From Arthrobacter citreus (lineage in GTDB: Bacteria; Actinomycetota; Actinomycetes; Actinomycetales; Micrococcaceae): a stretch of 64,000 bases of DNA. Each line of letters opens with the position of its first letter. Position 1 is the first letter of the stretch. Location of the stretch: assembly GCF_009192745.1 (NCBI RefSeq), contig NZ_VTFV01000002.1:806001-870000 (forward strand), given 5' to 3'. Positions 7,507 through 22,846 of this stretch are shown one piece after another. The notes under the pieces were generated by a model, which was given only the letters and a program-made list of their open reading frames with translations, did not search any database and was not told the DNA's origin. Made by a program: the position numbers and the translations under genes.

Positions 7507-7526
7507 CCTCCACCTCACCTCTCCAT

Positions 7527-7582
7527 CGAGATCGCAGAAACTGCCCGTTAGAAGCTTCTAACGGGCAGTTTCTGTCATCTCG
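7527..7582. repeat. 56-bp palindromic intergenic element, copy 1
   Basis: Two 28-nt arms (7527-7554, 7555-7582) matching at 26 of 28 positions with no loop. The outer part is CGAGAT..CAGAAACTGC and the centre is TTAGAAGCTTCTAA. It lies between the converging stops of paaZ and paaR and could act as a bidirectional terminator. Two further copies occur at 18992 and 22791. Confidence 0.92.
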
Positions 7583-7608
7583 TTTGGGAGGTATGAAAGG
7601 GAACGGGA

Positions 7609-8253
7609 TCAGGGCTTGCCGTGCAGGCCGTCGAACATCATTGAAATAATGTCGTCGGCGAGCTTGTCCGCACCGATCGGGCCGCCTGGCTTGTACCACT
7701 CAACAATCGAGTTGATCGTGCCGAAGAGCAGCCGGGTGGTGGTGCGCGGATCGATGTCGCTGCGCAGGGACCCTTCGGAGCGGGCGGCGTCTACGAGCTC
7801 CGCCACGCGGCGGTCGAACTGGCGGCGCCGTTCAAGTGCGTCGCGCTCAATATCGGTGTTGCCCCGCAGCCGCAGCAGGAGGGTGACGAACGGAAGCCGT
7901 TCGGTCAGGACCTTGATGGTGCCCCGGAGTACGAACTCGAGCCGGGCGTCGGCCGGGCCGGTGGAAGCCCGCGGGTCATCGAGAACCCCTTCAAGCCCGC
8001 CCAGCGCGTTTTCCAGGGCCAGGCGCAGCAGGTCGCCCTTGGACGGAACGTGGTGATAGATCGCGGACTTGGTGATGCCCAGGTTCTCCGCGAGGATGCC
8101 CATCGACGTCGCTTCGTAGCCGTGGCGGTTAAAGACGTCGACGGCGATGTTCAGCACGGTCTGCTGGTCGTAACCCGGGCGTCCACGGCGTGAACCGTTG
8201 CCGGCTGCGGAGGACGGGGAAGTCGCGGAACTCGAGGGACTAGGCATCTGCAT
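7609..8253 (-). CDS. paaR: PaaR: TetR-family repressor of phenylacetate catabolism
   Basis: 214 aa from ATG 8253. The frame is open to 8286, but that start sits inside a 13-bp inverted repeat, so MQMPSPSS is preferred (ATG 8247 is also possible). A serine-rich N-terminus precedes a TetR helix-turn-helix (IAVDVFNRHGYEATSMGILAENLGITKSAIYHHVPSKGDLL). The C-terminal ligand domain matches the TetR_C (YfiR/PaaR) type. Location between paaZ and paaK, and operator-like sites before each paa unit, support PaaR, a repressor that responds to phenylacetyl-CoA (known for the family). It is convergent with paaZ and lies downstream of paaK on the same strand. Confidence 0.85.
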   Translation of the reverse strand: MQMPSPSSSATSPSSAAGNGSRRGRPGYDQQTVLNIAVDVFNRHGYEATSMGILAENLGITKSAIYHHVPSKGDLLRLALENALGGLEGVLDDPRASTGPADARLEFVLRGTIKVLTERLPFVTLLLRLRGNTDIERDALERRRQFDRRVAELVDAARSEGSLRSDIDPRTTTRLLFGTINSIVEWYKPGGPIGADKLADDIISMMFDGLHGKP

Positions 8254-8257
8254 ATTT

Positions 8258-8309
8258 TCGCATGAACGTTCGGTTGGCCGGGACATGCCCGGCCAACCGA
8301 ATGATCATA
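8258..8309 (-). promoter_or_regulatory. paaR promoter region with PaaR-like site and 13-bp inverted repeat
   Basis: On the minus strand a TATGAT -10-like hexamer (8304-8309) is followed by a perfect 13-bp inverted repeat with a 5-nt loop (8270-8282 with 8288-8300), then a second site of the form ACCGAACGTTCAT (8262-8274) resembling the paaI and paaA sites. The repeat has no T run, so an operator or mRNA hairpin is likelier than a paaK terminator. Confidence 0.5.
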
Positions 8310-8316
8310 ACGGCTG

Positions 8317-9660
8317 CTAAGCCGGCTTGTTCTCCTGCTTGCGCAGGTCGTAGATGCGGCGCAGCTTGCCGCTGGAGCGTGCCAGCGAGCCGGGCTCCAC
8401 AACATGGATGGCGCAGGAGGATCCGATATGGATCTTGATCTGGTTCTTCAGCTCAGCCGCTGCCTTGCTGCATTCATCGGCGGACGATTCAGCACGGCGC
8501 TCGATCTTCACAGCCAGCTCGTCCATGCGGTCCGGGCGGGTGATCTCCAGCTGGAAGTGCGGGCTCAGGGCCGGAATCCGCAGCGCGATTTCCTCGATCT
8601 GGCTGGGGAAGAGGTTCACGCCGCGCAGGATGATCATGTCGTCATTGCGGCCCGTGATGCGGCCCATGCGGCGCATGCCCGGACGTGCCGTGCCCGGCAG
8701 CAGCCGGGTCAGGTCGTGCGTGCGGTAGCGGATGATCGGCAGCGCTTCCTTGGTGAGGGACGTGAAGACCAGCTCACCGTGCTCGCCGTCGTCCAGCACC
8801 TTGGTGTCATCGAACGGGTCGATGATCTCCGGACGGAAGTGGTCCTCCCAGATATGGGCGCCATCCTTGGTTTCCACGCATTCGCCTGCCACGCCCGGGC
8901 CCATGACCTCGGAAAGGCCATAGATGTCGCAGGCGTCGATGTCCATCATCTGCTCAAGCTCATGCCGCATTTCCTCGGTCCACGGCTCGGCGCCCAAGAC
9001 GGCGTTCTTCAGTGAGGTGGAGCGCGGATCAATCCCGGCGCGCTTCATGGCATCGGCGATGGTCAGCAGGTAGGTGGGGGTAGCCAGGATGGTGTCCGGC
9101 TGGAAGTCCTGGATCAGCTGGATCTGGCGTTCGGTCTGGCCGCCGGACATCGGAATGACCGTGCAGCCCAGCTTCTCGGCGCCGAAGTGGGCGCCAAGGC
9201 CGCCGGTGAAGAGACCGTAACCGTAGGCGTTGTGGACCTTGTAATTTGACTTCACGCCGGAGGCACGCAGCGAGCGGGCCACCAGTGTTCCCCAGCGGTC
9301 AAGATCGCCCTTGGTGTAGCCGACCACGGTGGGGCGGCCGGTGGTGCCGGAAGAGGCGTGGATGCGGGAGACCTCGTCCATCGGCACGGCGAACATGCCA
9401 AACGGATAGCTCTGGCGCAGGTCTTCCTTGGTGGTGTAGGGGAACTTGGCCAGGTCGGAGAGTTCCTTGAGGTCGTCCGGGTGGACACCGGCGTCGTCGA
9501 ACTTCTTCGTGTACAGCGGCACCCGCTCATAGGCGTAGCGAACCGTCTCCTTGAGGCGGGTGAGCTGCAGGGCCTCGATCTGGTCCCGGCTCATGAGCTC
9601 CTCGGCGTCGAGGGTGGCGGGATCTGCTGCGGTGGCCTTGATGGCGGAGGCGGTATTCAT
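8317..9660 (-). CDS. paaK: PaaK: phenylacetate-CoA ligase
   Basis: 447 aa, the normal length. An adenylate-forming enzyme that activates phenylacetate with ATP and CoA, the first committed step of the pathway. Visible motifs are the P-loop SSGTTGRPTVVGYT (residues about 103-116), the core AYGYGLFTGGLG, YGLSEVMGPGVA and YRTHDLTRLLPG, and the C-terminal AMP-binding domain with the catalytic-lysine region SSGKLRRIYDLRKQ. It lies 86 nt downstream of paaI and is probably co-transcribed from the paaI promoter. PaaR follows directly. Confidence 0.95.
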   Translation of the reverse strand: MNTASAIKATAADPATLDAEELMSRDQIEALQLTRLKETVRYAYERVPLYTKKFDDAGVHPDDLKELSDLAKFPYTTKEDLRQSYPFGMFAVPMDEVSRIHASSGTTGRPTVVGYTKGDLDRWGTLVARSLRASGVKSNYKVHNAYGYGLFTGGLGAHFGAEKLGCTVIPMSGGQTERQIQLIQDFQPDTILATPTYLLTIADAMKRAGIDPRSTSLKNAVLGAEPWTEEMRHELEQMMDIDACDIYGLSEVMGPGVAGECVETKDGAHIWEDHFRPEIIDPFDDTKVLDDGEHGELVFTSLTKEALPIIRYRTHDLTRLLPGTARPGMRRMGRITGRNDDMIILRGVNLFPSQIEEIALRIPALSPHFQLEITRPDRMDELAVKIERRAESSADECSKAAAELKNQIKIHIGSSCAIHVVEPGSLARSSGKLRRIYDLRKQENKPA

Positions 9661-9746
9661 TGCATAGAACCTTTGGAAGAGGGGTGGGGCTTGATTGTGC
9701 AGTGCTGGGAAGGAAAACGAAAGAGCGGGATCCTGCGGGCCGAACC

Positions 9747-10223
9747 CTAGCTTCGGCGGGCAGGATTGGGAATGGTGCGGGAGCGTCCCCTGAATTCAGC
9801 GATGACGCGCGTGGTGCCGTCAGGGGACTCCGCGGTGACCTCGATGTCGTAGACGCCGCTGCGGCCTGCTGCCGCCCGGCGGCTGGCTTCTGCCCGGAGC
9901 TTATCGCCGGCACGGGCTGAGGAGATGAAGTTGATGTCCGCGCCGGAAGCCACGGTGATGGTGTCCATGTTCGCCAGGGAATCGGCGCCGCTTGGGTTGC
10001 AGGCCAGCGCGAACGCGGTGTCGGCGAATGCGAAAACCATGCCGCCGTGGGCGATTGAAAACCCGTTGAGCATCTCGGGGCGCAGGTCCATGGTGATCAC
10101 GGCGTAGCCGTCCGCCAGGTCCTGGACCGAAATGCCAAGCCATTCAGACGTCGCGTCGTGCTCAAGGATGGGATGTGCCAGGCGCATTTCGCGGGCCGGG
10201 GCAGTGACGCCGGTGTCAGCCAT
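9747..10223 (-). CDS. paaI: PaaI: hotdog-fold acyl-CoA thioesterase
   Basis: 158 aa. The hotdog helix motif AHGGMVFAFADTAFALACN is characteristic of PaaI, which hydrolyses (hydroxy)phenylacetyl-CoA or ring-1,2-epoxide-derived dead-end CoA esters to recover CoA. The N-terminal part LGISVQDLADGYAVITMDL and the C-terminal strand VYDIEVTAESPDG fit the 4HBT fold. Its ATG has GGGAACC-type spacing only; translation may depend on AAAGAGAGG about 10 nt upstream. It is the first gene of the paaI-paaK(-paaR) minus-strand unit. Confidence 0.93.
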   Translation of the reverse strand: MADTGVTAPAREMRLAHPILEHDATSEWLGISVQDLADGYAVITMDLRPEMLNGFSIAHGGMVFAFADTAFALACNPSGADSLANMDTITVASGADINFISSARAGDKLRAEASRRAAAGRSGVYDIEVTAESPDGTTRVIAEFRGRSRTIPNPARRS

Positions 10224-10242
10224 GGGAACCCTCTCTTTTCTT

Positions 10243-10287
10243 TACCGAATGTTCATTAGGTAATCCTGTGAGCGTTATCACTGTCAA
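10243..10287 (-). promoter_or_regulatory. paaI-paaK promoter with PaaR-like operator
   Basis: Minus strand: a consensus -35 TTGACA (10282-10287) is followed after about 19 nt by a region holding TACCTA, overlapping an 18-bp site that reads TACCGAATGTTCATTAGG on the plus strand (10243-10260). That site has the same ACCGA-NN-GTTC core as the sites before paaA and paaR. Confidence 0.6.
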
Positions 10288-10369
10288 GTCGAGACGGGAC
10301 TGCGCCGCCGTGGGCCCGTCCCGCTGCGTAACAACCCGGCACTCCCAGCCTGCACAAAGGGTCATGGAC

Positions 10370-10381
10370 TAGCCTGTTGTG
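10370..10381 (+). promoter_or_regulatory. Leaderless-type -10 promoter element
   Basis: TAGCCT (10370-10375) lies exactly six bases before GTG 10382. This spacing selects 10382 over the adjacent in-frame GTG 10379. Confidence 0.55.
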
Positions 10382-11152
10382 GTGATCTCCGCCACAGCTG
10401 CTCCCGCTGCGCTGCAGCCAAAGTCCTCGCTCTTGCCGGAATGGCTGGATCCCCAGGTCTTCCTCGCCGACCCCGCAATCGGTCCGTGGGTGGTGCTGCT
10501 GATCTGCGGCATCGTCTTCGTGGAGACCGGATTGCTCATCGGCTTCTTCCTCCCCGGAGATTCCCTGCTCTTCACCGCGGGACTGCTGGTTGCCACGGGG
10601 GCCGTGCAAATCAACATCTGGGTGCTCATCCTGCTGATCGCCCTCTGCGCGTTCGCCGGAGACCAGCTCGGGTACTTCATCGGCCGCAAGGCCGGGCCCG
10701 TGGTCTTCAACAGACCCGAATCCAGGTTCTTCCACCAGGAGAACGTGGAGCGTGCTGAGGCCTTCTTTGCCCGCCACGGCGGCAAAGCCGTGGTGCTGGC
10801 CCGCTTCATCCCGGTGATCCGCACCTTCACCCCGGTGGTGGCCGGCGTCGGACGGATGCACTACGCCACCTTCATTGCCTACAACGCCATCGGCGGAGCC
10901 GTCTGGGCGCTCTCCGTCACCCTGCTGGGCTACATCCTGGGGGACCGGGTCCCGTTTGTGCGGGACAACCTGGACCTGATCTTCCTGGGCGTCATCGGCC
11001 TGACGCTGGTCTTTGTGGTCGCGGGCCTGTTCCGGCCCGGCCGCCGGACGCAGCGTACGGCGAAGCAGCAAGATGCGCCGGAGCAGAAAGGCGTGCGGAA
11101 GCCGCGGCCAATGCCCCGCCCCCGGCCCGAAGCTGCCGCCGGGGAGGACTGA
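10382..11152 (+). CDS. DedA/SNARE-associated family membrane protein
   Basis: 256 aa. About five to six hydrophobic segments surround the family hallmarks FFLPGDSLLF near residue 58, GDQLGYFIGRKAG and the re-entrant motif RFIPVIRTFTPVVAGVGRM. DedA proteins are inner-membrane flippases or transporters for polyprenyl-phosphate or phospholipid head groups and influence envelope integrity (known for the family). The C-terminal 40 residues are basic and proline-rich, probably cytoplasmic. The gene stands alone inside the paa region and is divergent from paaI. It has no evident role in phenylacetate metabolism. Confidence 0.9.
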   Translation: MISATAAPAALQPKSSLLPEWLDPQVFLADPAIGPWVVLLICGIVFVETGLLIGFFLPGDSLLFTAGLLVATGAVQINIWVLILLIALCAFAGDQLGYFIGRKAGPVVFNRPESRFFHQENVERAEAFFARHGGKAVVLARFIPVIRTFTPVVAGVGRMHYATFIAYNAIGGAVWALSVTLLGYILGDRVPFVRDNLDLIFLGVIGLTLVFVVAGLFRPGRRTQRTAKQQDAPEQKGVRKPRPMPRPRPEAAAGED

Positions 11153-11154
11153 AA

Positions 11155-11198
11155 ACGGCGCAGGCCGGGCACCCACAGGGGCACCCGGCCTACGCCGT
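11155..11198. terminator. Bidirectional hairpin terminator
   Basis: Arms 11155-11169 and 11184-11198 pair over 15 positions with one mismatch. The hairpin lies between the converging dedA and oligopeptidase genes. Confidence 0.7.
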
Positions 11199-11214
11199 CG
11201 TTCTTCGCTGCTTC

Positions 11215-13398
11215 CTACCGGGCCGCAGCCGCCGGTGAGCTGACCCCGGGAAGCAGATCCCGGGCATCCAGCGCCGAGAGCACAAAGGCGTAGTCCCAGG
11301 CACGGTCCTTCCAGGCCTCGTAGCGGCCGGAGGCACCGCCGTGCCCGCCGTCCATTTCGATCTTCAGCACCACAGGCTCGGAGCCGGTGGTGGTTTCGCG
11401 CAGCTTGGCCACCCACTTGGCCGGCTCCACGTACAGCACGCGGGTGTCGTTGAAGCTGGTGACGGCGGCGATACGCGGATACTCGACGGCTCGCACGTTC
11501 TCATACGGGCTGTACTCGCTCATGTAGCGGTACACCTCGGGATCGGTGATCGGGTTGCCCCATTCCTCCCACTCCAGCGCGGACAGCGGCAGGTTGGGAT
11601 CCAGGATGGTGGTCAGCGCATCCACGAACGGCACCTGCGCCACGATCGCCCGGTACTTCTCCGGAGCCAGGTTCGCCACGGCGCCCATGAGGAGTCCGCC
11701 GGCGGAGCCGCCCATGGCCGCGATCCGGGCCGGGTCAACCCAGCCCGACGCCGCCATGTGGTCGGTCGCTGCCACGAAGTCGGTGAAGGTGTTCTTCTTG
11801 TTCAGCTTCTTGCCCTGGTCGTACCAGGCCCGGCCCATCTCGCCGCCGCCGCGGATATGGGCAACGACAAAGATGACGCCGCGGTCCAGCAGGGAGAGCC
11901 GGGCAATGTTGAAGGCCGGGTCCATGGAGATTTCGTAGCTGCCGTACGCGTAGATCAGGGCGGGATTGGAACCGTCCCGGGCCACCTCGGCCCGGCGCAG
12001 CACAGAGAGCGGAATCCGGGTGCCGTCAGCCGCCGTCGCCCAGTCACGCTCCGCCACGTACTGTGCGGGATCATAGTTCCCCCGCACCGGGGTTTCCTTC
12101 CGCAGCTGCAGTTCGCCGGTGGCCAGCACGTAGTCGTAGACACGCGGCGGTGTCAGGTAGGAGGTGTAGCTTAGGCGGATGATCGGCGAATCGTATTCTG
12201 CGTTGGTCAGGCCTGCGGTGTAGAGCTCCTCGTCGAAGGCGGGTTCCGACGGCGCTGCCTGCTCCGGGGTGCCGATGCCGGCCAGCGGCAGGATCTGCAC
12301 GCGCTCGGTGGTGTCCTTGCGGACCGAAACCAGGAGGTGCGTGGAGGTGACGGACACCCCGTTGACCCGCACGGCGTCGTCGTGCGCCACCACGGTTTGC
12401 CACTGCTGTTCGCTCAGCGGCTTGGCGAATTCACCCTCCGCGACCAGGGACACCATGGAGTTCAGGGCGTTCCTGTTGTGGGTAATAAGGTACTGCCGTT
12501 CCCCGTTTCGGGTGAACGGTTCTGCTTCATAGAGGATCCGCTCGCTGCGAGGGATCAGGGTCCGCACGGTGTCCGACGCGTCGTCGAAATCCATCACCCG
12601 GTACTCGCTGTATTCGGAGCAGCTGACGCCGATCAGCAGCTGCTTCCGGTCTGCGGAGAGGTCGAAGCCCGTCCACATGGCGACGTCGTCTTCCTGATAA
12701 AGAACGGTGTCCTCACTGACATCGGTGCCCAGGGTGTGCGCCTTGATCTGGTAGGGACGCCAGGAATCATCGACGACGGTGTAGAAAACGCGGGTGCCGT
12801 CCGGTGAGAAGGCGAGCGAGTAGAACACGTTGGAAACGACGTCGGGCAGCAGTTCACCGGTGCGCAGATCCTTGATCCGCAGCGTGAAGCGCTCGTCTCC
12901 GGCATTGTCCTCACAGTAGGCCAGCAGGTTGCCGTCCTCGGTGACGGCCAGCCCGCCCAGGGAGAAGAAGGGCTTGCCTTCGGCTTCGGCATTGCCGTCA
13001 ATCAGGATCTGTTCCCCGGGCACGGGAACGCCGGGTTCGACGACGGGAGGGGTCCAGTCCGCGTGCAGGTCACCGGTGTCCCGGGCTGCGGTGCGGCAGT
13101 GGATCGCGTACTGCTGGCCTTCCTCGGTGCGGGTGTAGTACCACCAGCCGCGCTTGCGCGCCGGAACTGAAAGGTCGGTTTCAACGGTGCGGGCCCTGAT
13201 CTCGTCGAAGATCTCCTGCCGCAGCGGCTCCTGGTCTGCGGTAACGGCCTCGGTGTAGGCGTTCTCCGCGTTGAGGTGCTGAACCACCTCCGGGTTTTCC
13301 TTCTCCCGCATCCATTCGTAGTCGTCGGTGAACGTTTCACCGTGGTGGGTACGTTCGACGGGGACTTTTTTCGCGGCCGGGGGAACAGGTGTAGTCAT
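11215..13398 (-). CDS. ptrB: Oligopeptidase B (protease II), prolyl oligopeptidase family
   Basis: 727 aa from ATG 13398; the open frame extends to 13422, but TATATT exactly six bases upstream of 13398 indicates a leaderless start there. The N-terminal beta-propeller (about 60-400) precedes an alpha/beta hydrolase domain with nucleophile motif GGSAGGLLMGA, Asp in SFNDTRVLYVEPAKW and His in DGGHGGASGR. The HIRGGGEMGRAWYDQGKKLNKKNTF region is typical of oligopeptidase B, a cytosolic serine peptidase cutting short peptides after basic residues. No signal peptide. It is convergent with dedA. Confidence 0.94.
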   Translation of the reverse strand: MTTPVPPAAKKVPVERTHHGETFTDDYEWMREKENPEVVQHLNAENAYTEAVTADQEPLRQEIFDEIRARTVETDLSVPARKRGWWYYTRTEEGQQYAIHCRTAARDTGDLHADWTPPVVEPGVPVPGEQILIDGNAEAEGKPFFSLGGLAVTEDGNLLAYCEDNAGDERFTLRIKDLRTGELLPDVVSNVFYSLAFSPDGTRVFYTVVDDSWRPYQIKAHTLGTDVSEDTVLYQEDDVAMWTGFDLSADRKQLLIGVSCSEYSEYRVMDFDDASDTVRTLIPRSERILYEAEPFTRNGERQYLITHNRNALNSMVSLVAEGEFAKPLSEQQWQTVVAHDDAVRVNGVSVTSTHLLVSVRKDTTERVQILPLAGIGTPEQAAPSEPAFDEELYTAGLTNAEYDSPIIRLSYTSYLTPPRVYDYVLATGELQLRKETPVRGNYDPAQYVAERDWATAADGTRIPLSVLRRAEVARDGSNPALIYAYGSYEISMDPAFNIARLSLLDRGVIFVVAHIRGGGEMGRAWYDQGKKLNKKNTFTDFVAATDHMAASGWVDPARIAAMGGSAGGLLMGAVANLAPEKYRAIVAQVPFVDALTTILDPNLPLSALEWEEWGNPITDPEVYRYMSEYSPYENVRAVEYPRIAAVTSFNDTRVLYVEPAKWVAKLRETTTGSEPVVLKIEMDGGHGGASGRYEAWKDRAWDYAFVLSALDARDLLPGVSSPAAAAR

Positions 13399-13410
13399 GT
13401 CCCGAATATA
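13399..13410 (-). promoter_or_regulatory. Leaderless-type -10 promoter element
   Basis: On the minus strand TATATT (13405-13410) lies six bases before ATG 13398 of the oligopeptidase B gene. Confidence 0.55.
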
Positions 13411-13493
13411 TCGATCCCTCAACCAGCCCGCGATGGGCCGCGCCCCCTTTATGCTGGCGGCTTATGCGCCGCCGCGGCTGCCCCGCGGCGTAC

Positions 13494-14063
13494 CTAGCGG
13501 CCCAGCAGGATCCAGGCACTGAACATGCCCGCAGCGGCGAAGAACACCCAGTTGGCCAGCACCAGTGCCAGGGTGTGGGCGAAGGGCCTGTGGCCGTGCA
13601 GGCTTCTTACGTGGGCGGGATCCTGGCTGGCAGGCCCGCGGCGGAACTGGGACCACAGGGAGGTGGCCAGCAGCAGGCCACCGCCGGCCGCGGCGACCGG
13701 AAAAGCCGGCAGTGTCAGGATCACCGTGGCGCCCGCAGTCCAGAACAGGAGGACGTGCGCCACGACGACGCCGGCCAGGACGGCCAGCGGGCGGCCGGGC
13801 CGTCCCGCGAGGGCCGCGGGCAGATACCGGGGTGTGGCACCCGCCGCTGCCAGGAGTGTCAGAACTATGGCCAGCCCGCTCACTGTGATGCCGAGGGTGC
13901 CGCCGGTGGACGCCACGGCAGCGGCCACGGCGCAGAACCCCAGCAGGCCCAGCAGGATCGGCACCAGCAGGTGTGCGGCCATGCCGGGCGCGGAAGCCTG
14001 TGCGGAAGCCTCCGCGGCAGCCGGACGTATCCGGGTGCGCTCGGACGCTTCACTGCCTGCCAT
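13494..14063 (-). CDS. Multi-pass membrane protein of unknown function
   Basis: 189 aa. A hydrophilic N-terminus (about 27 residues) is followed by roughly five hydrophobic segments rich in Ala, Leu and Val, with a cytoplasmic-type basic loop RRGPASQDPAHVRSLHGHRPFAH before the last one. I recognise no family. ATG has AGGAGG about nine bases upstream. It lies upstream of oligopeptidase B on the same strand, but the latter has its own promoter. It is divergent from paaA. Confidence 0.6.
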   Translation of the reverse strand: MAGSEASERTRIRPAAAEASAQASAPGMAAHLLVPILLGLLGFCAVAAAVASTGGTLGITVSGLAIVLTLLAAAGATPRYLPAALAGRPGRPLAVLAGVVVAHVLLFWTAGATVILTLPAFPVAAAGGGLLLATSLWSQFRRGPASQDPAHVRSLHGHRPFAHTLALVLANWVFFAAAGMFSAWILLGR

Positions 14064-14178
14064 GCTGTGGTTCCTCCTGCCTGGGCTGATAGATCAAAGG
14101 TAGCCGCTGCCCCGCCTCCGTGCCGCCACGGCGTCTCCCGCCGCCTCGCCGTCACGGCCGCGCAAAACGGATTCCGCC

Positions 14179-14227: not shown

Positions 14228-14289
14228 ATTGGCCGAACGACTTCCGCGGAGCTGTCCGCGGCCACGTGGAAAACAGTGAGGTGACATCT

Positions 14290-15273: not shown

Positions 15274-15275
15274 GC

Positions 15276-15638: not shown

Positions 15639-16453
15639 ACACGGACAGCGCCACCCGCATCACCCCGGGCAACGCCCTCCGCCCGGAGGACATTGCAGCC
15701 TCTGATGCCAAGGCCCCCGAAGCCGTCGCGGAGTACGCGCTCCGCCTGGGCGACGACGCACTGATCCTGGCCCAGCGCCTGGGCTGGTGGGTTGCCCGGG
15801 CCCCGGAGCTGGAAGAGGACATTGCCCTTTCCAACATCGCCCTGGACCTGATTGGTCATGCCCGGTCCTTCCTCACCTACGCCGGCACTGCCTGGGACAA
15901 GACCGAGGATGACCTGGCCTACTGGCGAGGTGAAGAGGAATACCGTTCCGCCCACATCGTGGAGCAGGAAAACGGCGACTTCGCCAAGACGATTGCCCGC
16001 CAGCTGGTGGTCTCCTTCTTCCAGTACGAGCTTTACACCGCCATGCTCTCCTCCAAGGACGAGACCCTGGCGGCCATCGCGGCCAAGGCCGTGAAGGAAG
16101 TCGACTACCACCGCGACCACAGCGCCCAGTGGGTGCTGCGCCTGGGCCAGGGAACCGAGGAATCACGCACCCGGATGATCCGCGCCCTGGAACTCATCTG
16201 GCCGTACGTGGGCGAGCTGTTCGAGGACGATGACCTGGTTCGCTCCCTCGACGGAATCGCCGTCGTGCCCTCCACGCTCCGCGCTGCCTTCGATGAGAAG
16301 GTCGGTGCCGTGCTGGCCGAAGCCGAGCTCGAAGCCCCAGAGGTGCAGCCCGCACCGGGCGGCGGACGCCGCGGCGAGCACAGCGAGTACCTCGGCTACA
16401 TCCTGGCTGAGCTCCAGGTGCTGGCCCGCCAGCACCCCGGTGCAACCTGGTAA
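15635..16453 (+). CDS. paaC: PaaC: structural subunit of phenylacetyl-CoA epoxidase
   Basis: 272 aa, starting with GTG that overlaps the paaB stop. It has the ferritin-like helical fold of PaaA but serves as the structural beta subunit; recognisable segments are LAQRLGWWVARAPELEEDIALSNIALDLIGHARSFL and KEVDYHRDHSAQWVLRLGQGTEESRTRM. Member of the paaABCDE operon, five bases before paaD. Confidence 0.95.
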   Translation: MNTDSATRITPGNALRPEDIAASDAKAPEAVAEYALRLGDDALILAQRLGWWVARAPELEEDIALSNIALDLIGHARSFLTYAGTAWDKTEDDLAYWRGEEEYRSAHIVEQENGDFAKTIARQLVVSFFQYELYTAMLSSKDETLAAIAAKAVKEVDYHRDHSAQWVLRLGQGTEESRTRMIRALELIWPYVGELFEDDDLVRSLDGIAVVPSTLRAAFDEKVGAVLAEAELEAPEVQPAPGGGRRGEHSEYLGYILAELQVLARQHPGATW

Positions 16454-16458
16454 CAGCT

Positions 16459-17004
16459 ATGAACGAGACTGAGGCAGCACCCCCCGTCGACGCCGCAGCC
16501 AGTACGCAGCTGCGACCCGCGGACCCCGCATCAGCGGCCGCCTGGGACGTAGCGGCGACAGTCTGCGACCCGGAAATCCCGGTCCTGACCATTGAGGACC
16601 TGGGTGTTCTGCGGGCCGTTCAGGTCCAGCAGGACAACTCGGTGCGGGTGGCCATCACCCCCACTTACTCCGGCTGCCCCGCCATGGACGCGATCCGCGA
16701 CGACGTCACCGCCGCGCTCGTTGCCGCCGGCTACGGACCGGTCCGCGTGGACCTGGTCCTGGCCCCGGCCTGGACCACGGACTGGATGAGCGAATCCGGC
16801 AAGACCAAACTCAACGAGTACGGCATCGCCCCGCCCACCGGCCGGGCCGCTGCCGGACCCGTCCGGCTGGGCCTTAGCGTCAAGTGCCCCCAGTGCTCCT
16901 CACTCAACACGCGTGAAATGACACGCTTTGGCTCTACTTCCTGCAAGGCGCTGTACGTCTGCCGCGACTGCCAGGAACCCTTCGACTACTTCAAGGTGCT
17001 CTAA
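16459..17004 (+). CDS. paaD: PaaD: Fe-S maturation factor for the epoxidase system
   Basis: 181 aa. The N-terminal MIP18/DUF59 domain (AATVCDPEIPVLTIEDLGVL, YSGCPAMDAI) is followed by a C-terminal zinc-ribbon-like tail with CPQC and CRDC pairs (residues about 138-172). PaaD is thought to help assemble the PaaE iron-sulfur cluster or the di-iron centre. Tightly placed between paaC and paaE (three bases to the next start). Confidence 0.94.
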   Translation: MNETEAAPPVDAAASTQLRPADPASAAAWDVAATVCDPEIPVLTIEDLGVLRAVQVQQDNSVRVAITPTYSGCPAMDAIRDDVTAALVAAGYGPVRVDLVLAPAWTTDWMSESGKTKLNEYGIAPPTGRAAAGPVRLGLSVKCPQCSSLNTREMTRFGSTSCKALYVCRDCQEPFDYFKVL

Positions 17005-17007
17005 ACC

Positions 17008-18168
17008 ATGACAACCTCCACCACCGAGGCGGGCGCAGCTCCCGCCTCGCGCCGCACCGCCTTCCACCCGCTGACGGTCAGTGCTGTCCGCCGGCTCACC
17101 GAAGACGCCATCGAAGTCACCTTCGCGGTTCCCGAAGAGCTGACCGGTTCCTTCGATTACCTGCCCGGCCAGTACGTTGCCCTGCGCACCACGCTGGACG
17201 GCGCGGAAATCCGCCGCAGCTACTCCATCTGCGCGGAGCCGAAGCCCGGTGAAATCCGGGTCGCCATTAAGCGCGACCTCGGCGGCAAGTTCTCCACCTG
17301 GGCCAATGAAAACCTGAAGGCCGGGGACGTCCTGGACGTCATGAGCCCCACGGGCGGCTTCATCTCCAAGCACCCCATGACGGCGCTCAACCACCCCGAA
17401 GACATCGATGTCACGGATGAGAACGTGTTTGTCGCCGTCGCCGCCGGGTCCGGCATCACCCCGGTAATCTCCATTGCACGCACCGTGCTGGCAGCGTCGG
17501 AGAACGTGCGCTTTGACCTGGTCTACGCCAACAAGGCCGCCATGGACGTGATGTTCCTGGAGGAACTGGCGGACCTGAAGGACAAGTACCCGGCCCGCTT
17601 CGCCGTCCATCACGTGCTCTCCCGGGAACAGCGTATTTCCCCGCTGCTCTCCGGCCGGATCGACGCGGAGAAGCTTTCCGCACTCATCGAGTCCGTGCTC
17701 CCCACCCGCGACGTGGACGAGTGGTTCCTCTGCGGCCCGTTCGAACTCGTGCAGCTCTGCCGGGACACCCTGGCCGAGCGCGGCGTGGACTCGGAGAAGG
17801 TCCGCTTCGAACTCTTCACCACGGGCCAGCCCGGAAAGCCGGAAGGCCAGATCGGCCGCCCCATCCAGGTTGATCCGTCAGCCGACAACTTTGAGATCAG
17901 CTTCCGGCTGGACGGGCTGCAGGGCAAGGTGGCCAGCCCCACCCACGCCCGTGAATCCATCCTGAACGCCGCGCTCCGCGTCCGCCCGGATGTTCCGTTC
18001 GCCTGCGCCGGCGGCGTCTGCGGCACCTGTCGCGCCAAGGTGGTCTCCGGCACCGTGGAAATGGAAGAAAACTACGCCCTGGAACCGGATGAAATCGAAA
18101 AGGGTTACATCCTGACCTGCCAAAGCCGCCCCACCAGTCCCGAAGTCACCGTCGACTACGACGCCTAG
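17008..18168 (+). CDS. paaE: PaaE: ferredoxin-type reductase of phenylacetyl-CoA epoxidase
   Basis: 386 aa. An N-terminal FAD-binding reductase domain (PGQYVALRT, RRSYSIC) and NAD(P)-binding domain (AAGSGITPVISIARTVL, FLCGPFELV) are followed by a plant-type 2Fe-2S domain with cysteines spaced C-x4-C-x2-C (CAGGVCGTC) and a final Cys in ILTCQS. It passes electrons from NADPH to the PaaA di-iron site. Fifth gene of the operon, 14 nt before the next gene. Confidence 0.95.
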   Translation: MTTSTTEAGAAPASRRTAFHPLTVSAVRRLTEDAIEVTFAVPEELTGSFDYLPGQYVALRTTLDGAEIRRSYSICAEPKPGEIRVAIKRDLGGKFSTWANENLKAGDVLDVMSPTGGFISKHPMTALNHPEDIDVTDENVFVAVAAGSGITPVISIARTVLAASENVRFDLVYANKAAMDVMFLEELADLKDKYPARFAVHHVLSREQRISPLLSGRIDAEKLSALIESVLPTRDVDEWFLCGPFELVQLCRDTLAERGVDSEKVRFELFTTGQPGKPEGQIGRPIQVDPSADNFEISFRLDGLQGKVASPTHARESILNAALRVRPDVPFACAGGVCGTCRAKVVSGTVEMEENYALEPDEIEKGYILTCQSRPTSPEVTVDYDA

Positions 18169-18182
18169 GAGCGAAGCCACCG

Positions 18183-18977
18183 ATGAGCGAGCAGAACCAG
18201 CCTGAGTCCATGGTTGAACTCAGCATTAACGACGGCGTTGCCGAGGTTGTCCTCAACGCCCCGCAGAAGCTCAATTCACTGGATGAAAAGGCCCTCGCGG
18301 ACCTGTCCAAGGCCTATGACGACGCCGCTGCCGCCGGAGTGCGCGCGCTTCTGCTGCGCGGGGAAGGCAGGGCCTTCTGCGCCGGACGCGATATCTCCGG
18401 CGTCGTACCGGCCGAAGACGACGCTTATGCCTACCTCGGTGACCTGGTCACCCCGCTGCTGAAGAAGATGGCAGCCTTCCCGGCACCCACCTTCGCAGCC
18501 GCGCAGGGTGCCTGCCTCGGCGTCGGGCTGGGCCTGCTGGTGGCCACCGACGTGGTCTACGTGGCGGACAATGCGAAGATCGGCTCGCCGTTCGCGAACC
18601 TGGGGGCAACCCTGGATTCGGGCGGACACTGGCTCTTCACCGAGCGGCTGGGCGCCCACCGCACGCTGGACCTGATCTACACGGCAGACCTGATGAGCGG
18701 AACGGAAGCCGTAGCTGCTGGCCTGTTCAGCCGGGTCTTCCCGGCCGACGAGCTGCTGGACACCACCCGGGCCACGGTTGCCCGCGTGGCCTCCGGTGCC
18801 ACCGAAGCGTTCCGTGCTTCCAAGGAACTCGTGGCACAGATTCGCGATGCCCGCCTGGGACTCTGGGAGTCGGTCGAGGATGAGAACAAGGCCCAGGGTG
18901 TGCTTTGCGGTACCGAGGACTATGCCGAAGGTTTCGCCGCCTTCAAGGAAAAGCGCAAGCCAGTGTTCAAGGGCTAG
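18183..18977 (+). CDS. paaG: PaaG-type enoyl-CoA isomerase (1,2-epoxyphenylacetyl-CoA isomerase)
   Basis: 264 aa crotonase. The oxyanion-hole motifs are AFCAGRDI and GACLGVGLGL. At the two positions where hydratases such as PaaF carry catalytic Glu it has Leu (GVGLGLLVATD) and Asp (ATLDSGGHWL); the Asp matches the LxPDCGG pattern of PaaG. This favours isomerisation of ring-1,2-epoxyphenylacetyl-CoA to the oxepin over hydration. Position directly after paaE supports it. A broad enoyl-CoA hydratase role cannot be excluded. It ends 14 nt before the second 56-bp palindrome. Confidence 0.75.
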   Translation: MSEQNQPESMVELSINDGVAEVVLNAPQKLNSLDEKALADLSKAYDDAAAAGVRALLLRGEGRAFCAGRDISGVVPAEDDAYAYLGDLVTPLLKKMAAFPAPTFAAAQGACLGVGLGLLVATDVVYVADNAKIGSPFANLGATLDSGGHWLFTERLGAHRTLDLIYTADLMSGTEAVAAGLFSRVFPADELLDTTRATVARVASGATEAFRASKELVAQIRDARLGLWESVEDENKAQGVLCGTEDYAEGFAAFKEKRKPVFKG

Positions 18978-18991
18978 CTTTCCCCTCTCGT

Positions 18992-19047
18992 CGAGATAGC
19001 AGAAACTGCACGATACAGCCCTGTAACGTGCAGTTTCTGCCATCTCG
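18992..19047. repeat. 56-bp palindromic intergenic element, copy 2
   Basis: Two 28-nt arms (18992-19019, 19020-19047) matching at 25 of 28 positions. Same outer sequence as copies 1 and 3 (CGAGAT..CAGAAACTGC), but with CACG instead of CCCG on one arm and the complementary change on the other. It closes the paaABCDE-paaG operon, with the next gene in the same direction. Confidence 0.92.
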
Positions 19048-19147
19048 ATGGGAACGGGGAGCGGATATTCGACACGGCGTCGAAACTTCGGGAGAATTGC
19101 AGGGCCGGATGCGATCCCGCCCGGTACACGGTGCCTGAGGAGGACCG

Positions 19148-19762
19148 ATGACAGCGCGTGCCGCACGCTTGGTGCGCGGCTGGGCCGGAGCATTCGCGGC
19201 CACGGCCGTGGCTGCTGCGTCGCACGTGCTTGGCGGCGGTGCCGCTCCCGAACCGGCCCTCGTGCTGTTCTGCCTGGCAATTTCCGGCATGGTCAGCTGC
19301 CTGCTCGCCGGACGCGGGCTTTCGCTGCCCCGCCTCAGCACCGCCGTCGTGTTCAGCCAGGGGCTGTTCCACCTCATTTTCAGCTTCGGTTCCGCCCCGG
19401 CCGCCGTCGGTGCAGGCTCGGGCCACGCCCACCACGCGGGTCCCTCGCTGACAGAGACCGGAACTGCTGCCGCCGCGGCCGCCGCATCGGCTCCCGCACA
19501 CGGACTCCTGATGTGGGTCAGCCACGCCCTTGCCGCCGCGGCCACGGTGTGGATTATTGCCCACGGCGAGCGGACCCTGGTGCGCCTCATCGAAGCGCTC
19601 GGCGTCCGACCCGGTGCGCTGCTGCCCCTGTTCCGGCCCGCACACCTTCGCCGTCCCATCACTGCCGTCCTGGCTGTGCGGCCCCTTGGGCTGCGCAACC
19701 TCGGCATCCCCCTTCTGACGCTCCGGCACCGGGGCCCACCTGCTGCATTCGTGTCCAGCTAG
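19148..19762 (+). CDS. Membrane protein of a copper/DyP gene cluster
   Basis: 204 aa. About four hydrophobic segments, a His/Gly/Ala-rich loop (GSGHAHHAGPS) after the third and a basic C-terminal tail. I recognise no named family. The His-containing loop and the position 55 nt upstream of copC suggest a role with copper handling (inference). ATG has GAGGAGG about four bases upstream. Probably the first gene of the cluster with copC, the PCu(A)C gene and the DyP peroxidase. Confidence 0.65.
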   Translation: MTARAARLVRGWAGAFAATAVAAASHVLGGGAAPEPALVLFCLAISGMVSCLLAGRGLSLPRLSTAVVFSQGLFHLIFSFGSAPAAVGAGSGHAHHAGPSLTETGTAAAAAAASAPAHGLLMWVSHALAAAATVWIIAHGERTLVRLIEALGVRPGALLPLFRPAHLRRPITAVLAVRPLGLRNLGIPLLTLRHRGPPAAFVSS

Positions 19763-19817
19763 GCGCACTCCGCGCACCCACACGAATCCCAGTTCCTTCC
19801 CGGAACGGAAAGCAGTT

Positions 19818-20447
19818 ATGCCTACCACTTTTTACCGCCAGGCCCGCACCCGTGCCTCGCTCCTTGCCGCAGCTCTCCTCGCAGCCTTCGCAGCGGTTCT
19901 CTTCCTTGCAGCACCGGCACACGCGCACGATGAACTTGTGTCCTCCAACCCGGCGGACGGTGCCGTCCTGGATGCCGCTCCCTCCGAGATTGAACTGGTC
20001 TTCAGTTCAGAACTCATGGACCTGGGCAACCAGGTCATCGTCGAAGACTCTGCCGGGAAGAACCTCGCCGAGTCCGAGCCGGTCCTGACACGCGAAACCC
20101 TGGTCCAGTCCGTTCCTGCCCTCGACGCGGGCGAATACAAGGTCAACTGGCGTGCGGTATCCAGCGACGGGCACCCGATCACCGGCACCTTCAGCTTCAC
20201 CGTGAACGCTCCTGCCGGGGAAAGCCCCTCACCGGCTGCAACGGAGTCCGCTGCCGCCCCGGCGCCCAGCGAGCCCGCTCCCAGCGCGTCAGCAGATCCG
20301 GCAGAAGCAGAGCCGGCAGCGCAGGAGTCCAGCGTGGCATCCCACCTGCCGTGGGCCCTCGCCGGTGTCGGCGCAGGAGCAGCTGCAGCCCTCGCAGCCT
20401 GGGCAATCGTGGTCCAGGTCAAGAAGCGCCGCGGCGCCAGCGCCTAA
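19818..20447 (+). CDS. CopC-domain copper-binding protein, membrane-anchored
   Basis: 209 aa. A signal peptide (residues 1-36, ending AHA) exposes His37 at the mature N-terminus, and the beta-barrel ends with SSDGHPITG carrying His119; these are the usual Cu(II) ligands of CopC/YobA proteins. The motif HDELVSSNPADGAVLDAAPSEIELVFS is typical. A Pro/Ala/Ser linker (about 128-170) leads to a C-terminal transmembrane helix and a short basic tail. It therefore sits outside the membrane, binding copper. Confidence 0.9.
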   Translation: MPTTFYRQARTRASLLAAALLAAFAAVLFLAAPAHAHDELVSSNPADGAVLDAAPSEIELVFSSELMDLGNQVIVEDSAGKNLAESEPVLTRETLVQSVPALDAGEYKVNWRAVSSDGHPITGTFSFTVNAPAGESPSPAATESAAAPAPSEPAPSASADPAEAEPAAQESSVASHLPWALAGVGAGAAAALAAWAIVVQVKKRRGASA

Positions 20448-20452
20448 CTGAA

Positions 20453-20471
20453 ACTGCCGTCACGCGGCAGT
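20453..20471 (+). terminator. Small hairpin after copC
   Basis: A 7-bp inverted repeat (20453-20459 with 20465-20471) with a 5-nt loop and no T run. It may attenuate or stabilise the operon transcript rather than terminate it. Confidence 0.3.
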
Positions 20472-20558
20472 CCCCTCCAGGCCCTGCCCCGGCAGCGTCT
20501 GCCCTTTCATTGACCGCGCCTAGATGCGCGGAACACACCTTTGGAGTACCCGAAAATC

Positions 20559-21164
20559 ATGAAGAAAATCACTCTCGCCGCAGTCGTCCTTGCCGTCTCC
20601 GCTGCGGCCCTCACCGGTTGTGGCTCCTCCAGCCCCGCAGCCGAAACGGCCCCTGCTCCGGATGATGCCGCAGCGCTGTCCATGACCGGAGCCTGGGCGA
20701 AGGCCGCAGAAGCAGACGAAATGACCGGCGCTTTTGGCACGCTCGAAAACTCCGGCGACGAGGACCTCACCATCGTCGCCGCCAGTTCGGCGTCCGCCTC
20801 AACCGTTGAACTGCACGAAGTGGCAATGGACGACGACGGAGCGATGGTCATGCGCGAAATCGAAGGAGGATTCGTGGTCCCCGCCGGAAGCGACTACCTC
20901 CTGGAGCCCGGAGCGAGCCACCTGATGCTGATGGGCCTGACGGACGGACTGCTCGCCGGAGACACGGTGACGATCACCCTCGAGCTGGCTGACGGCTCCA
21001 CCCTGGACGTCGACGCCGTGGCCAAGGACTTCGCGGGCGGAAACGAAAGCTACGGATCCGGCGAAGGCCACGACGCCGGGGGCCACGGGGCTGGATCACA
21101 CGGCACTGAGACACACGGCAATGAGACCCACGGGACTGAAACCCATGGGACTGCGGACCACTAA
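20559..21164 (+). CDS. PCu(A)C-type periplasmic copper chaperone lipoprotein
   Basis: 201 aa from ATG 20559 (a TTG six codons earlier gives a poorer signal sequence). The lipobox LTGC places a lipidated Cys at position 21. The Cu(I) motif of the PCuAC family is present as H86..M90 and H121-x-M123 (HEVAM and SHLMLM). After residue 165 the protein ends in a Gly/His-rich tail with repeated THG units, likely extra metal ligands. The family delivers copper to cytochrome oxidase or other secreted cuproproteins. Its stop overlaps the start of the peroxidase gene in TAATG. Confidence 0.88.
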   Translation: MKKITLAAVVLAVSAAALTGCGSSSPAAETAPAPDDAAALSMTGAWAKAAEADEMTGAFGTLENSGDEDLTIVAASSASASTVELHEVAMDDDGAMVMREIEGGFVVPAGSDYLLEPGASHLMLMGLTDGLLAGDTVTITLELADGSTLDVDAVAKDFAGGNESYGSGEGHDAGGHGAGSHGTETHGNETHGTETHGTADH

Positions 21165-22414
21165 TGAGCGCTGAAACCACACCACGGGGCGTGGGCCGGC
21201 GCCGCCTGCTCTTCGGCGGTGCCGCGGCGGGCCTGGGGGCGGTTGCGGCTGCCGGCGGCCACCTGGCCGGCAGCCGGGGGTTCGGGCAGGGAAGCGCGGA
21301 GATGGAACGGACAGGGCTGGATGAGGCGGGAAGCAACGGCCGCCAGACAGTTCCGTTCTACGGCCGGCACCAGGCCGGCATAGCCACCCCGCCCGGGTCC
21401 TGCGCAGCTTTCGTTGCCCTGGACCTGCGCGACGGCGTCGGCCGGGACCGCATCCGGTCCTGGCTGCGGATGCTGAGTGATGACGCAGCCGCGCTGACCC
21501 AGGGTGAACCTGCGCTGGCAGACACCGAGCCGGAGCTGGCCCGGAACCCGGCGCGGCTGACGGTGACGTTCGGGTTCGGGCCCGGCCTCGTGGCCGCCGT
21601 GGCTCCGGAACTGGCCCCTGCCTGGCTCGGCCCGCTTCCCGCCTTCGGCATCGACAAGCTCGAAGAGCGGTGGAGCGGGGGAGACCTGATGCTCCAGTTG
21701 TGCGCCGATGACCCGCTGACCCTGGCCCATGCCCAGCGGATGCTGCTGAAGGACAGCCGTGCGTTCGCCGTCGTCCGCTGGATCCAGCCGGGCTTCCGCC
21801 ATGCCTACGGCAGCGAACCTGCCGGCACCACCATGCGCAACCTGTTTGGACAGGTGGACGGTTCCGCGAACGCGCTGCCGGGGACGCCGGAGTTCGAACG
21901 GGTGGTGTGGGGCGACGCGGAGATTCCGGCCTGGCTGGAAGGCGGCACCTCGATGGTCGTCCGGCGGATCGCGATGAACCTGGACACCTGGGATGAACTG
22001 GACCGGCGGGGCAGGGAAGAAGCGGTGGGCCGCAGGCTCGCCAACGGTGCGCCGCTGACGGGTGAAAATGAGCGGGATGAGCCGGACTTCGACGCCGTCA
22101 CCGGACTCGGGTTCAAGGTCATCCCGGAGTACGCCCACATGCGCCGTGCACGTCCGGAGAATCCGCGGCAGCGGATATTCCGCCGCGGCTACAACTACGA
22201 CGACGCTCCGGAACCTGGTGGCGCGGTCTCCAACGCGGGTCAGATCTTCGTTGCCTTCCAAGCGGATGTCGCCGAGCAGTTTGTGCCGATCCAGCAGCGG
22301 CTGGACAAACTGGACCTGCTCAATGAGTGGACGACGCCCATCGGATCGGCTGTATTCGCCGTGCCGCCGGGTGCATCGGAGGGCGGATTCGTGGGAGAGG
22401 GGCTCTTTAGGTAG
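21164..22414 (+). CDS. Tat-exported DyP-type peroxidase
   Basis: 416 aa. The twin-arginine signal is GRRRLLFGGAAAG followed by a hydrophobic stretch. The DyP signature FGQVDGSAN (distal GxxDG) and the C-terminal YAHMRRARPENPRQRIFRRGYNYDD, containing the proximal haem His and an essential Arg region, are intact. DyP peroxidases oxidise dyes or phenolics with H2O2, and EfeB relatives have been linked to haem or iron handling. Translational coupling to the copper chaperone suggests co-export with copper proteins. Confidence 0.92.
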   Translation: MSAETTPRGVGRRRLLFGGAAAGLGAVAAAGGHLAGSRGFGQGSAEMERTGLDEAGSNGRQTVPFYGRHQAGIATPPGSCAAFVALDLRDGVGRDRIRSWLRMLSDDAAALTQGEPALADTEPELARNPARLTVTFGFGPGLVAAVAPELAPAWLGPLPAFGIDKLEERWSGGDLMLQLCADDPLTLAHAQRMLLKDSRAFAVVRWIQPGFRHAYGSEPAGTTMRNLFGQVDGSANALPGTPEFERVVWGDAEIPAWLEGGTSMVVRRIAMNLDTWDELDRRGREEAVGRRLANGAPLTGENERDEPDFDAVTGLGFKVIPEYAHMRRARPENPRQRIFRRGYNYDDAPEPGGAVSNAGQIFVAFQADVAEQFVPIQQRLDKLDLLNEWTTPIGSAVFAVPPGASEGGFVGEGLFR

Positions 22415-22453
22415 GGATTGCCCGGCGGCTGGTAGTCCCGCTAGGTTGGAAAG

Positions 22454-22467
22454 GTCAGCATGCTGAC
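22454..22467. promoter_or_regulatory. 14-bp perfect palindrome, candidate operator
   Basis: GTCAGCATGCTGAC, perfectly symmetrical and loop-free, 41 bp before the small acidic-protein gene at 22509 and followed by an AT-rich stretch. A regulator site is plausible. Confidence 0.4.
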
Positions 22468-22508
22468 TAATTGTTTTCTCCCTTGCGGGACATCACCGAA
22501 AGGCCACG

Positions 22509-22772
22509 ATGACGCAAAGCTACGATCCGAACAATGATCCAGCCAACCCGGACAAGCCCAAGGAAGCTGACCACGCTGCCGCGCAAAAGGGGCCGGAAAC
22601 CACGGAAGGAACCGGCAACCATGCCGGCAGCGGCGAAAAGGGCCGCCGGGTGAATCCTGATCCGGCCGAAGGGAACATCACCGGGCTGGAGCCGGGCGGC
22701 GGAGTTCCGCCGGGGGAGACCCCTCCCGCCGAGGATCAGATGAGCATGGACCAGGGGCACGACGAGAACTGA
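22509..22772 (+). CDS. Small hydrophilic protein (DUF6480-like)
   Basis: 87 aa, with no hydrophobic segment, rich in Pro, Gly, Asp, Glu and Asn, and probably disordered. The C-terminal part ITGLEPGGGVPPGETPPAEDQMS resembles the short actinobacterial family I know as DUF6480; I cannot confirm the assignment. ATG has AAAGG about six bases upstream. Its own promoter region carries a 14-bp palindrome. It ends 18 nt before the third 56-bp palindrome. Confidence 0.65.
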   Translation: MTQSYDPNNDPANPDKPKEADHAAAQKGPETTEGTGNHAGSGEKGRRVNPDPAEGNITGLEPGGGVPPGETPPAEDQMSMDQGHDEN

Positions 22773-22790
22773 CGTCCCGTCCCTGGAAAT

Positions 22791-22846
22791 CGAGATGACA
22801 GAAACTGCCCGTTTGGAGCTCCAAACGGGCAGTTTCTGTCATCTCG
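22791..22846. repeat. 56-bp palindromic intergenic element, copy 3
   Basis: A perfect palindrome: arms 22791-22818 and 22819-22846 match at all 28 positions. Outer sequence as in copy 1; the centre TTTGGAGCTCCAAA differs from the other copies but remains self-complementary. It lies between two converging stops, five bases from the stop of the Lrp-type gene. Confidence 0.95.

What the first reader, a model, noticed from the sequence alone, without database searches (positions are those of the whole stretch)
7527..22846. Family of exactly 56-bp intergenic palindromes at gene 3' ends
Copies at 7527-7582, 18992-19047 and 22791-22846 are all exactly 56 bp, with two 28-nt arms and no loop; copy 3 is perfect and copies 1 and 2 have 2 and 3 mismatches. 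The outer sequence CGAGAT..CAGAAACTGC is shared, while the central 14 bp differ between copies (TTAGAAGCTTCTAA, a variant with CTGTA, TTTGGAGCTCCAAA) and stay self-complementary. Changes in one arm are matched by changes in the other, which points to selection on pairing. Every copy lies 14-20 nt after a stop codon on at least one side, and two lie between converging genes. They may be dispersed bidirectional terminators, RNA processing hairpins, or the palindromic units of a small non-autonomous repeat. None has a T run. If this density holds, a genome of several Mb would carry more than a hundred.
Basis: partly seen in the sequence, partly recalled or inferred. Interest (0 to 1): 0.8.

Follow-up and report, generated by a model that had tools for sequence, protein, structure and literature searches.

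The report
Dispersed fixed-length palindromic gene-end hairpins
This Arthrobacter genome carries dozens of nearly perfect 56-bp palindromes a few bases after stop codons, at gene ends where a sister species often has an ordinary transcription terminator; related actinobacteria carry similar families with their own sequence, and they probably act as two-way gene-end hairpins.

Summary
The three palindromes belong to a family of at least about 75 copies in the 3.55-Mb genome, with subfamilies A, A' and B, nearly all exactly 56 bp (59 of 60 in the scanned stretches). Arms covary strongly across copies and at orthologous sites. Elements sit a median 17 nt after stop codons, are enriched between convergent genes, and in 62 of 63 tandem cases lie nearer the upstream stop than the next start, like T-tract terminators in a sister species. 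One gene end can carry A in one species, B in another and an ordinary terminator in a third. Covariance models find similar palindromes in other genera, families and orders of the class; four genomes show their own repeated consensus; 0 of 20 unrelated genomes matched. No REP-type transposase (0 of 29). Best reading: bidirectional, largely tail-less 3'-end hairpins that also behave as a dispersed repeat. Termination is inferred, not shown; the strand test for an RNA-level signal was null, and exclusion with T-terminators is only a trend. How copies spread or switch subfamily is unknown.

The parts
7527..7582 (.). copy 1, 56-bp palindrome, subfamily A (26 of 28 pairs), between convergent paaZ-like and TetR-like genes
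   Evidence: site 11: A in G000, G017, G025; B in G023; ordinary hairpin with T tract in G018
18992..19047 (.). copy 2, 56-bp palindrome, subfamily A (25 of 28 pairs), 14 nt after the stop of an enoyl-CoA hydratase-like gene; tandem context
   Evidence: site 12: present in G000, G017, G025; absent in G023 and G018
22791..22846 (.). copy 3, perfect 56-bp palindrome, subfamily A, between a small ORF (22509-22772 +) and an Lrp/AsnC-like regulator (22852-23373 -)
   Evidence: site 13: A in G000, G017, G025; B in G023; no element in G018
7507..7526 (.). C-rich left flank of copy 1 (C-rich left / G-rich right flanks are typical of the family)
7583..7600 (.). purine-rich right flank of copy 1, partly pairing with the left flank
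5422..7506 (+). paaZ-like gene whose 3' end meets copy 1 (name by recall from the translation, no family search made)
18183..18977 (+). enoyl-CoA hydratase-like gene upstream of copy 2 (name by recall)
22852..23373 (-). Lrp/AsnC-like gene whose stop lies 5 nt from copy 3 (name by recall)

Best explanation
The palindromes are bidirectional 3'-end elements. On either strand the RNA folds into a ~26-bp hairpin with a small loop, starting about 17 nt after the stop codon and serving both convergent genes. Shown: near-fixed length, dyad symmetry kept through double changes, gene-end placement, retention at orthologous gene ends, presence at gene ends where a sister species often has T-tract terminators, no Y1 (REP-type) transposase. 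Inferred: the hairpin defines or protects the RNA 3' end, either as a tail-less ('I-shaped') intrinsic terminator (subfamilies A and A' also offer a U-rich stretch after their GC core) or as an exonuclease barrier behind Rho-dependent release. The same sequences also behave as a dispersed repeat: they share a lineage-specific consensus, appear at new gene ends and differ in subfamily at one site between species. The copying mechanism is unknown; ectopic recombination or template switching between hairpins is my guess.
For: Placement: conv 88, tandem 63, div 8, edge 6 of 165 distinct 56-bp elements from several species (orthologues included, so not all independent); median 17 nt after the stop. 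In G000 alone conv 26, tandem 15, div 4, edge 3 of 48, convergent excess p = 1.7e-9 against the gene-pair base rate; tandem elements nearer the upstream stop in 62 of 63; strong T-terminators in G018 sit a median 21 nt after the stop, n = 37. Covariation: 249 double-change cells vs 87.6 shuffled, at most 52 when slid by 1-3 columns; G000 vs G025 orthologues show 8 Watson-Crick to Watson-Crick double changes (4 of them at site 9) against 20 single-side changes in 392 pairs. Substitution: convergent regions with an element or a T-terminator 22 of 46 in G000, close to 27 of 58 in G018, which has no element there, while T-terminators alone are 14 of 46 in G000; 9 of 14 G000 element sites located in G018 have a T-terminator by my rule. 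Retention: elements at 14 of 16 located sites in G017, 14 of 16 in G025, 9 of 13 in G023, 0 of 14 in G018. Stability: -54 to -58 kcal/mol with flanks.
Against: No RNA data. The G.U against A.C strand test is not significant. Mutual exclusion with T-terminators is only a trend (G000: both in 1 of 9 regions with an element, T-terminator in 13 of 37 without; p = 0.16; other genomes p = 0.10-0.22) and one orthologous site has both in all four species. 9 of 14 (two of the nine weak) is not far above 27 of 58 for convergent regions in G018. Subfamily B has no U-rich tract, so intrinsic termination there would have to be tail-less, which is disputed in mycobacteria (PMC12288462 passages). 4 of 48 G000 elements were called divergent by my own gene caller.
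Confidence: 0.6

Rival explanations
1. Selfish or passive palindromic repeat: copies are inserted or converted by an unknown activity and persist where harmless, i.e. behind stop codons; no gene-end function. Arm covariation comes from DNA-level correction of quasi-palindromes.
For: Lineage-specific consensus within each genome; different subfamilies at 6 orthologous sites; hybrid elements with arms of two kinds (G000:C5:449986, G023:C1:2801373); presence in G025 and G005 at a site empty in G000 and G017 (site 20); null strand test.
Against: Tight spacing to the upstream stop, equal to that of terminators, and 62 of 63 tandem copies on the upstream side; retention across flanks of roughly 75-97% identity; presence at terminator sites. 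No Y1 transposase and no direct target-site repeat seen in flanks.
Confidence: 0.25
2. Sequence-specific protein site: a conserved factor binds the outer CGA...CAG half-sites (as DNA dyad or RNA duplex), giving the fixed length; the palindrome is its docking site for RNA processing, termination or chromosome organisation.
For: Anchors C1, A3, C9-A10-G11, G17-C18 stay nearly constant while most other pairs change on both sides; near-constant length within a genome, 56, 57, 58 or 58-59 by lineage.
Against: The interior is also palindromic and covaries, which a two-half-site DNA binder would not need; anchors outside Arthrobacter are partly enforced by the models that found them; no candidate protein was sought beyond Y1.
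Confidence: 0.1
3. DNA-uptake signal paired as terminators, as in Neisseria and Pasteurellaceae.
For: Inverted pairs of a conserved sequence at gene ends, the arrangement described in PMC1852404 (passages).
Against: Unpaired half-sites are nearly absent: CAGAAACTGC outside elements 1 of 25 in the G000 stretch, and 0-3 for each of three half-sites in four genomes, whereas that paper gives uptake signals as generally 1,000 or more per genome.
Confidence: 0.02

Closest known systems
I-shaped (tail-less) intrinsic terminators of mycobacteria (Unniraman et al. 2001, seen only as cited in PMC12288462)
   Same: stable hairpin without a poly-U tail, mostly within 50 bp of the stop codon, high-GC actinobacteria
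   Different: those are described by shape, not by shared sequence; here they are a repeat family with a consensus and near-fixed length, and A has a U-rich stretch inside its stem; whether they terminate is untested
REP / BIME sequences
   Same: dispersed intergenic palindromes with lineage-specific consensus and subfamilies
   Different: 56-59 bp, loopless and nearly perfect; no Y1 (RAYT) transposase in 29 genomes of the genus; the REP head motif was not tested
Uptake-signal terminators of Neisseria and Pasteurellaceae (PMC1852404)
   Same: inverted pairs of one sequence forming gene-end hairpins
   Different: almost no unpaired half-sites; longer stem; no T tail
MITEs
   Same: short dispersed inverted repeats
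   Different: no interior between the arms, no direct target-site repeat seen; no transposase other than Y1 was sought

Membership tests
Canonical intrinsic terminator | GC-rich hairpin followed by a T run | tested here: not met
   flank after the full hairpin is G-rich; A has 4-6 T of 8 inside the 3' arm, B 2 of 8
Canonical intrinsic terminator | located just behind stop codons | tested here: met
   median 17 nt; G018 T-terminators 21 nt
I-shaped terminator | stable hairpin without U tail within 50 bp of the stop | tested here: met
   median 17 nt, 95% point 75 nt; energies; the U-rich stretch of A lies inside the stem
I-shaped terminator | terminates transcription in vivo or in vitro | not testable with these tools
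   no RNA data
REP with RAYT | Y1 (TnpA-REP) transposase in the genome | tested here: not met
   PF01797 in 0 of 29 genomes; 5 of 14 control genomes matched
REP with RAYT | dispersed intergenic palindromes in many copies | tested here: met
DNA uptake signal | many unpaired copies genome-wide | tested here: not met
   (stretches of 340-400 kb, not whole genomes)
MITE | target-site duplication and parent transposase | tested here: inconclusive
   no direct repeat in flanks; the AT next to the element is self-complementary, so a 2-bp duplication cannot be excluded; only Y1 was sought
Rfam family | match at gathering score | tested here: not met
   for the whole window; for copy 1 gave 16 matches (miRNA families and FsrA), all far below gathering

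The most novel reading that the evidence does not exclude
A class-wide superfamily of sequence-anchored, near-fixed-length palindromic gene-end hairpins in Actinomycetes: each lineage has its own covarying consensus while length and CGA/CAG anchors persist, implying an undescribed factor that recognises and measures the hairpin for 3'-end formation and/or drives its copying and in-place subfamily switching.
Probability: 0.25. Interest if true: 0.85.

Novelty: new variant of a known kind. Interest (0 to 1): 0.62.

Why it matters
How high-GC actinobacteria end transcripts without T tracts is disputed. A repeat family at terminator positions, with natural A / B / ordinary-terminator replacements at the same gene end in close species, gives a ready comparative and experimental test. 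Concerted change of both arms at fixed sites, without a known transposase, is also an open question about how palindromes spread and evolve.

Tried and rejected
RAYT-mobilised REP: no Y1 transposase. Uptake signal: almost no unpaired half-sites. Phage, plasmid or viral origin: no match for copy 3 in phages or plasmids; 0 stretches in viral contigs for the strict superfamily pattern. Rfam: none at gathering. Flank palindrome beyond 2 bp: no covariation past offset 2, only C-rich/G-rich composition. In-place arm conversion with the interior kept: striking at site 10 (interior 14 of 14 identical between A' in G000 and B in G023) but not general (7 sites incl. site 17, mean 8.7 vs 7.7 of 14, permutation p = 0.13). 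RNA-strand wobble test: null. Mutual exclusion with T-terminators: trend only. Nine literature searches showed no listed title or abstract start that describes this family; the library holds open-licence papers only. Rows dropped: one search counted only 56-bp elements that pass its score limits and have at least 60 bases of flank; sites 3 and 14 (G000:633397, 873938; G023:3111092) were set aside as not family and G025:540423 (site 17) as an ordinary terminator; still counted two of these as elements, and repeats it without them.
Full report
WHAT IS THERE. The three reported palindromes are real and exact. The window is G000:C3:806001-870000 of a 3.55-Mb genome in 13 contigs. The core CAGAAACTGC..GCAGTTTCTG occurs 38 times in G000 with the gap left free from 10 to 30; 35 of 38 have the same 40-nt core (56 bp in all) and 3 of 38 one base more; the reversed control gave 0. 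With up to 3 mismatches and fixed length there are 46.

A SUPERFAMILY, NOT ONE MOTIF. A motif-free palindrome search and a half-site scan of syntenic 340-400 kb stretches showed further subfamilies of the same length: A' (CAGAAAGTGC) and B (CGAGAGGCCAGTTACGGCTCGT), with intermediates such as G000:C3:746045. Counts by scan were G000 18, G017 14, G023 12, G018 0, reversed controls 0 in 4 of 4, G025 19 at a slightly looser limit. After setting aside four degenerate or ordinary hairpins, 60 elements remain in four genomes, 59 of 56 bp and 1 of 57, although 54-58 was allowed. The strict superfamily pattern gives G000 47, G025 59, G005 45, G023 31, G017 30, G004 9, and 1 each in G003, G006, G007; 0 in the other 20 of 29; reversed control 0 in all 29. 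A covariance model found 150 rows in G000 and in G025 at E <= 0.01, which is the cap of scored rows and up to two rows per element, so at least about 75 elements; G018 gave 8 rows, outside the stretch read.

COVARIATION. On 71 distinct copies, 91.5% of cells pair (78.3% shuffled), 18 of 28 pairs have double changes, and 249 cells are doubly changed against 87.6 shuffled and at most 52 when slid by one to three columns. At orthologous sites the arms also change together: G000 vs G025, 14 sites, 392 pairs, 8 Watson-Crick to Watson-Crick double changes (4 of them at site 9), 20 single-side changes, 1 other; at site 4 positions 7-8 differ in three species and pair in all three. This may be selection for pairing on either RNA strand or DNA-level correction between arms. 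The test that could have separated them (G.U against A.C on the transcribed strand in tandem contexts) gave 51 vs 37, p = 0.17; convergent contexts 51 vs 54.

WHERE THEY SIT. With a codon-usage gene caller of my own, 165 distinct elements from several species are conv 88, tandem 63, div 8, edge 6; median stop-to-element distance 17 nt, quartiles 12 and 26, 95% point 75. For G000 alone: conv 26, tandem 15, div 4, edge 3 of 48, against base rates of 56/208/55 gene pairs in its stretch (convergent excess p = 1.7e-9; divergent deficit p = 0.09, or 0.0009 against intergenic regions of at least 70 nt). In tandem contexts 62 of 63 are nearer the upstream stop than the downstream start. Strong T-terminators in G018 sit a median 21 nt from the stop (n = 37; hairpins of 26-50 nt, not one length). 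Flanks are C-rich before and G-rich after, in tandem as well as convergent contexts.

WHAT THEY REPLACE. In G018, a sister species with no element in the stretch, the same gene ends often have GC hairpins with T tracts: 9 of 14 located sites by my rule, two of them weak, against 27 of 58 for all convergent regions there, so the excess is modest. Convergent regions carrying an element or a T-terminator number 22 of 46 in G000, 27 of 51 in G017, 25 of 56 in G025 and 23 of 49 in G023, similar to 27 of 58 in G018, while T-terminators alone are fewer (14 of 46, 20 of 51, 16 of 56, 17 of 49). Exclusion within a genome is not significant (p = 0.10-0.22), and one orthologous site has both in four genomes. 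At the end of paaZ (window copy 1), G000, G017 and G025 carry A, G005 has the same core beside paaZ, G023 carries B and G018 a T-tract hairpin. At window copy 3, G000, G005, G017 and G025 carry A, G023 carries B, G024 and G006 show other GC hairpins by eye, and G018 shows none.

TURNOVER. Of 17 G000 sites, elements are found at 14 of 16 located in G017 (one degenerate), 14 of 16 in G025, 9 of 13 in G023, 0 of 14 in G018. Six sites (7, 10, 11, 13, 15, 18) hold different subfamilies in different species. Site 20 is occupied in G025; G005 carries the same hybrid core with the same right flank, and G000 and G017 are empty there; on a single-gene, midpoint-rooted paaZ tree (((G025,G005),G000),G017) one gain is simpler than two losses. 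Some empty orthologues keep a G-rich tract like the elements' right flank (sites 9, 12), which suggests losses too. Hybrid elements with arms of two kinds exist.

HOW WIDE. In a sample of the family, 32 of 120 genomes and 17 of 32 genera, own genus included, match model R1 at E <= 1e-5; the loci shown are palindromes of 56-58 bp (L352-L367). A second model built on 34 diverse members (23 of 26 pairs with double changes; 95.7% paired against 66.7% shuffled) matches 50 of 297 genomes of the order and 28 of 296 of the class at E <= 1e-6, relatives included and at most 19 rows scored per genome, and 0 of 20 genomes of other phyla and orders (these were not matched for GC and were reached through loci with a chance A-like core). 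Most hits are 54-59 bp; one lineage (G444) has 62-66. R2 was built from hits of R1, so its anchors and length are partly self-fulfilling. Less dependent on that, four distant genomes each show repeated copies of their own consensus and length, mostly with a stop codon close by: G358 5 loci of 58 bp, G074 5 of 57 bp, G413 6 of 58-59 bp (looser consensus, stops often farther off), G313 4 of 56 bp of which 3 share one consensus.

MECHANISM. The RNA of each window copy with flanks folds to -54 to -58 kcal/mol, z about -10. Subfamilies A and A' have a GC core followed by a U-rich stretch inside the 3' arm (means 4.9 and 4.7 T of 8; n = 109 and 20); B has 2 of 8 (n = 14). A U tract is therefore not what the family conserves. 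A review states that mycobacterial genes mostly use I-shaped terminators without poly-U within 50 bp of the stop, and that Rho-dependent termination dominates; its reference list also holds work whose title says a U tract is required (PMC12288462, passages only). I commit to a bidirectional gene-end hairpin, tail-less terminator or 3'-end barrier, at 0.6; a repeat without function at 0.25.

NOVELTY. In its action it is most like I-shaped terminators; in its genomics most like REP sequences, but the Y1 transposase is absent. RepRanger (PMC12306157, passages) separates REPs from terminators by T-rich tails and so would probably file these as putative REPs; the word Arthrobacter occurs once in its main text, for A. 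livingstonensis. Nine literature searches listed no description of this family. I rate it a new variant of a known kind.

Noticed in passing
window 2754-2886 (-): SAM-IV riboswitch above gathering score.
   Followed up: no
window 8262-8308: 21-nt inverted repeat with GTTCGGTTGGCCGGG at the start of the TetR-like gene 7609-8286(-), perhaps its operator.
   Followed up: no
window 43485-43530 and 4101-4143: Perfect 20- and 19-bp hairpins that do not belong to the family.
   Followed up: no
G000:C3:710871-710926 (L225): A gene called by my caller runs 25 nt into a B-subfamily element and ends at a TAG inside it; same in G025 and G023.
   Followed up: partly
L032:5307-5362: Arthrobacter sp. 35W has a 56-bp palindrome with the same CAGAAACTGC at the same place but different outer sequence.
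   Followed up: partly
G018:C1 near 682161: Ordinary terminator at site 9 (AAAGATACGGCCCGCATGGA..) resembles the inner sequence of the G000 and G025 elements there; possible in-place origin.
   Followed up: no
G023:C1:2616875 and 2618763: Two copies 1.9 kb apart with longer centres (59 and 57 bp) sharing TATCCACACCGGATA.
   Followed up: no
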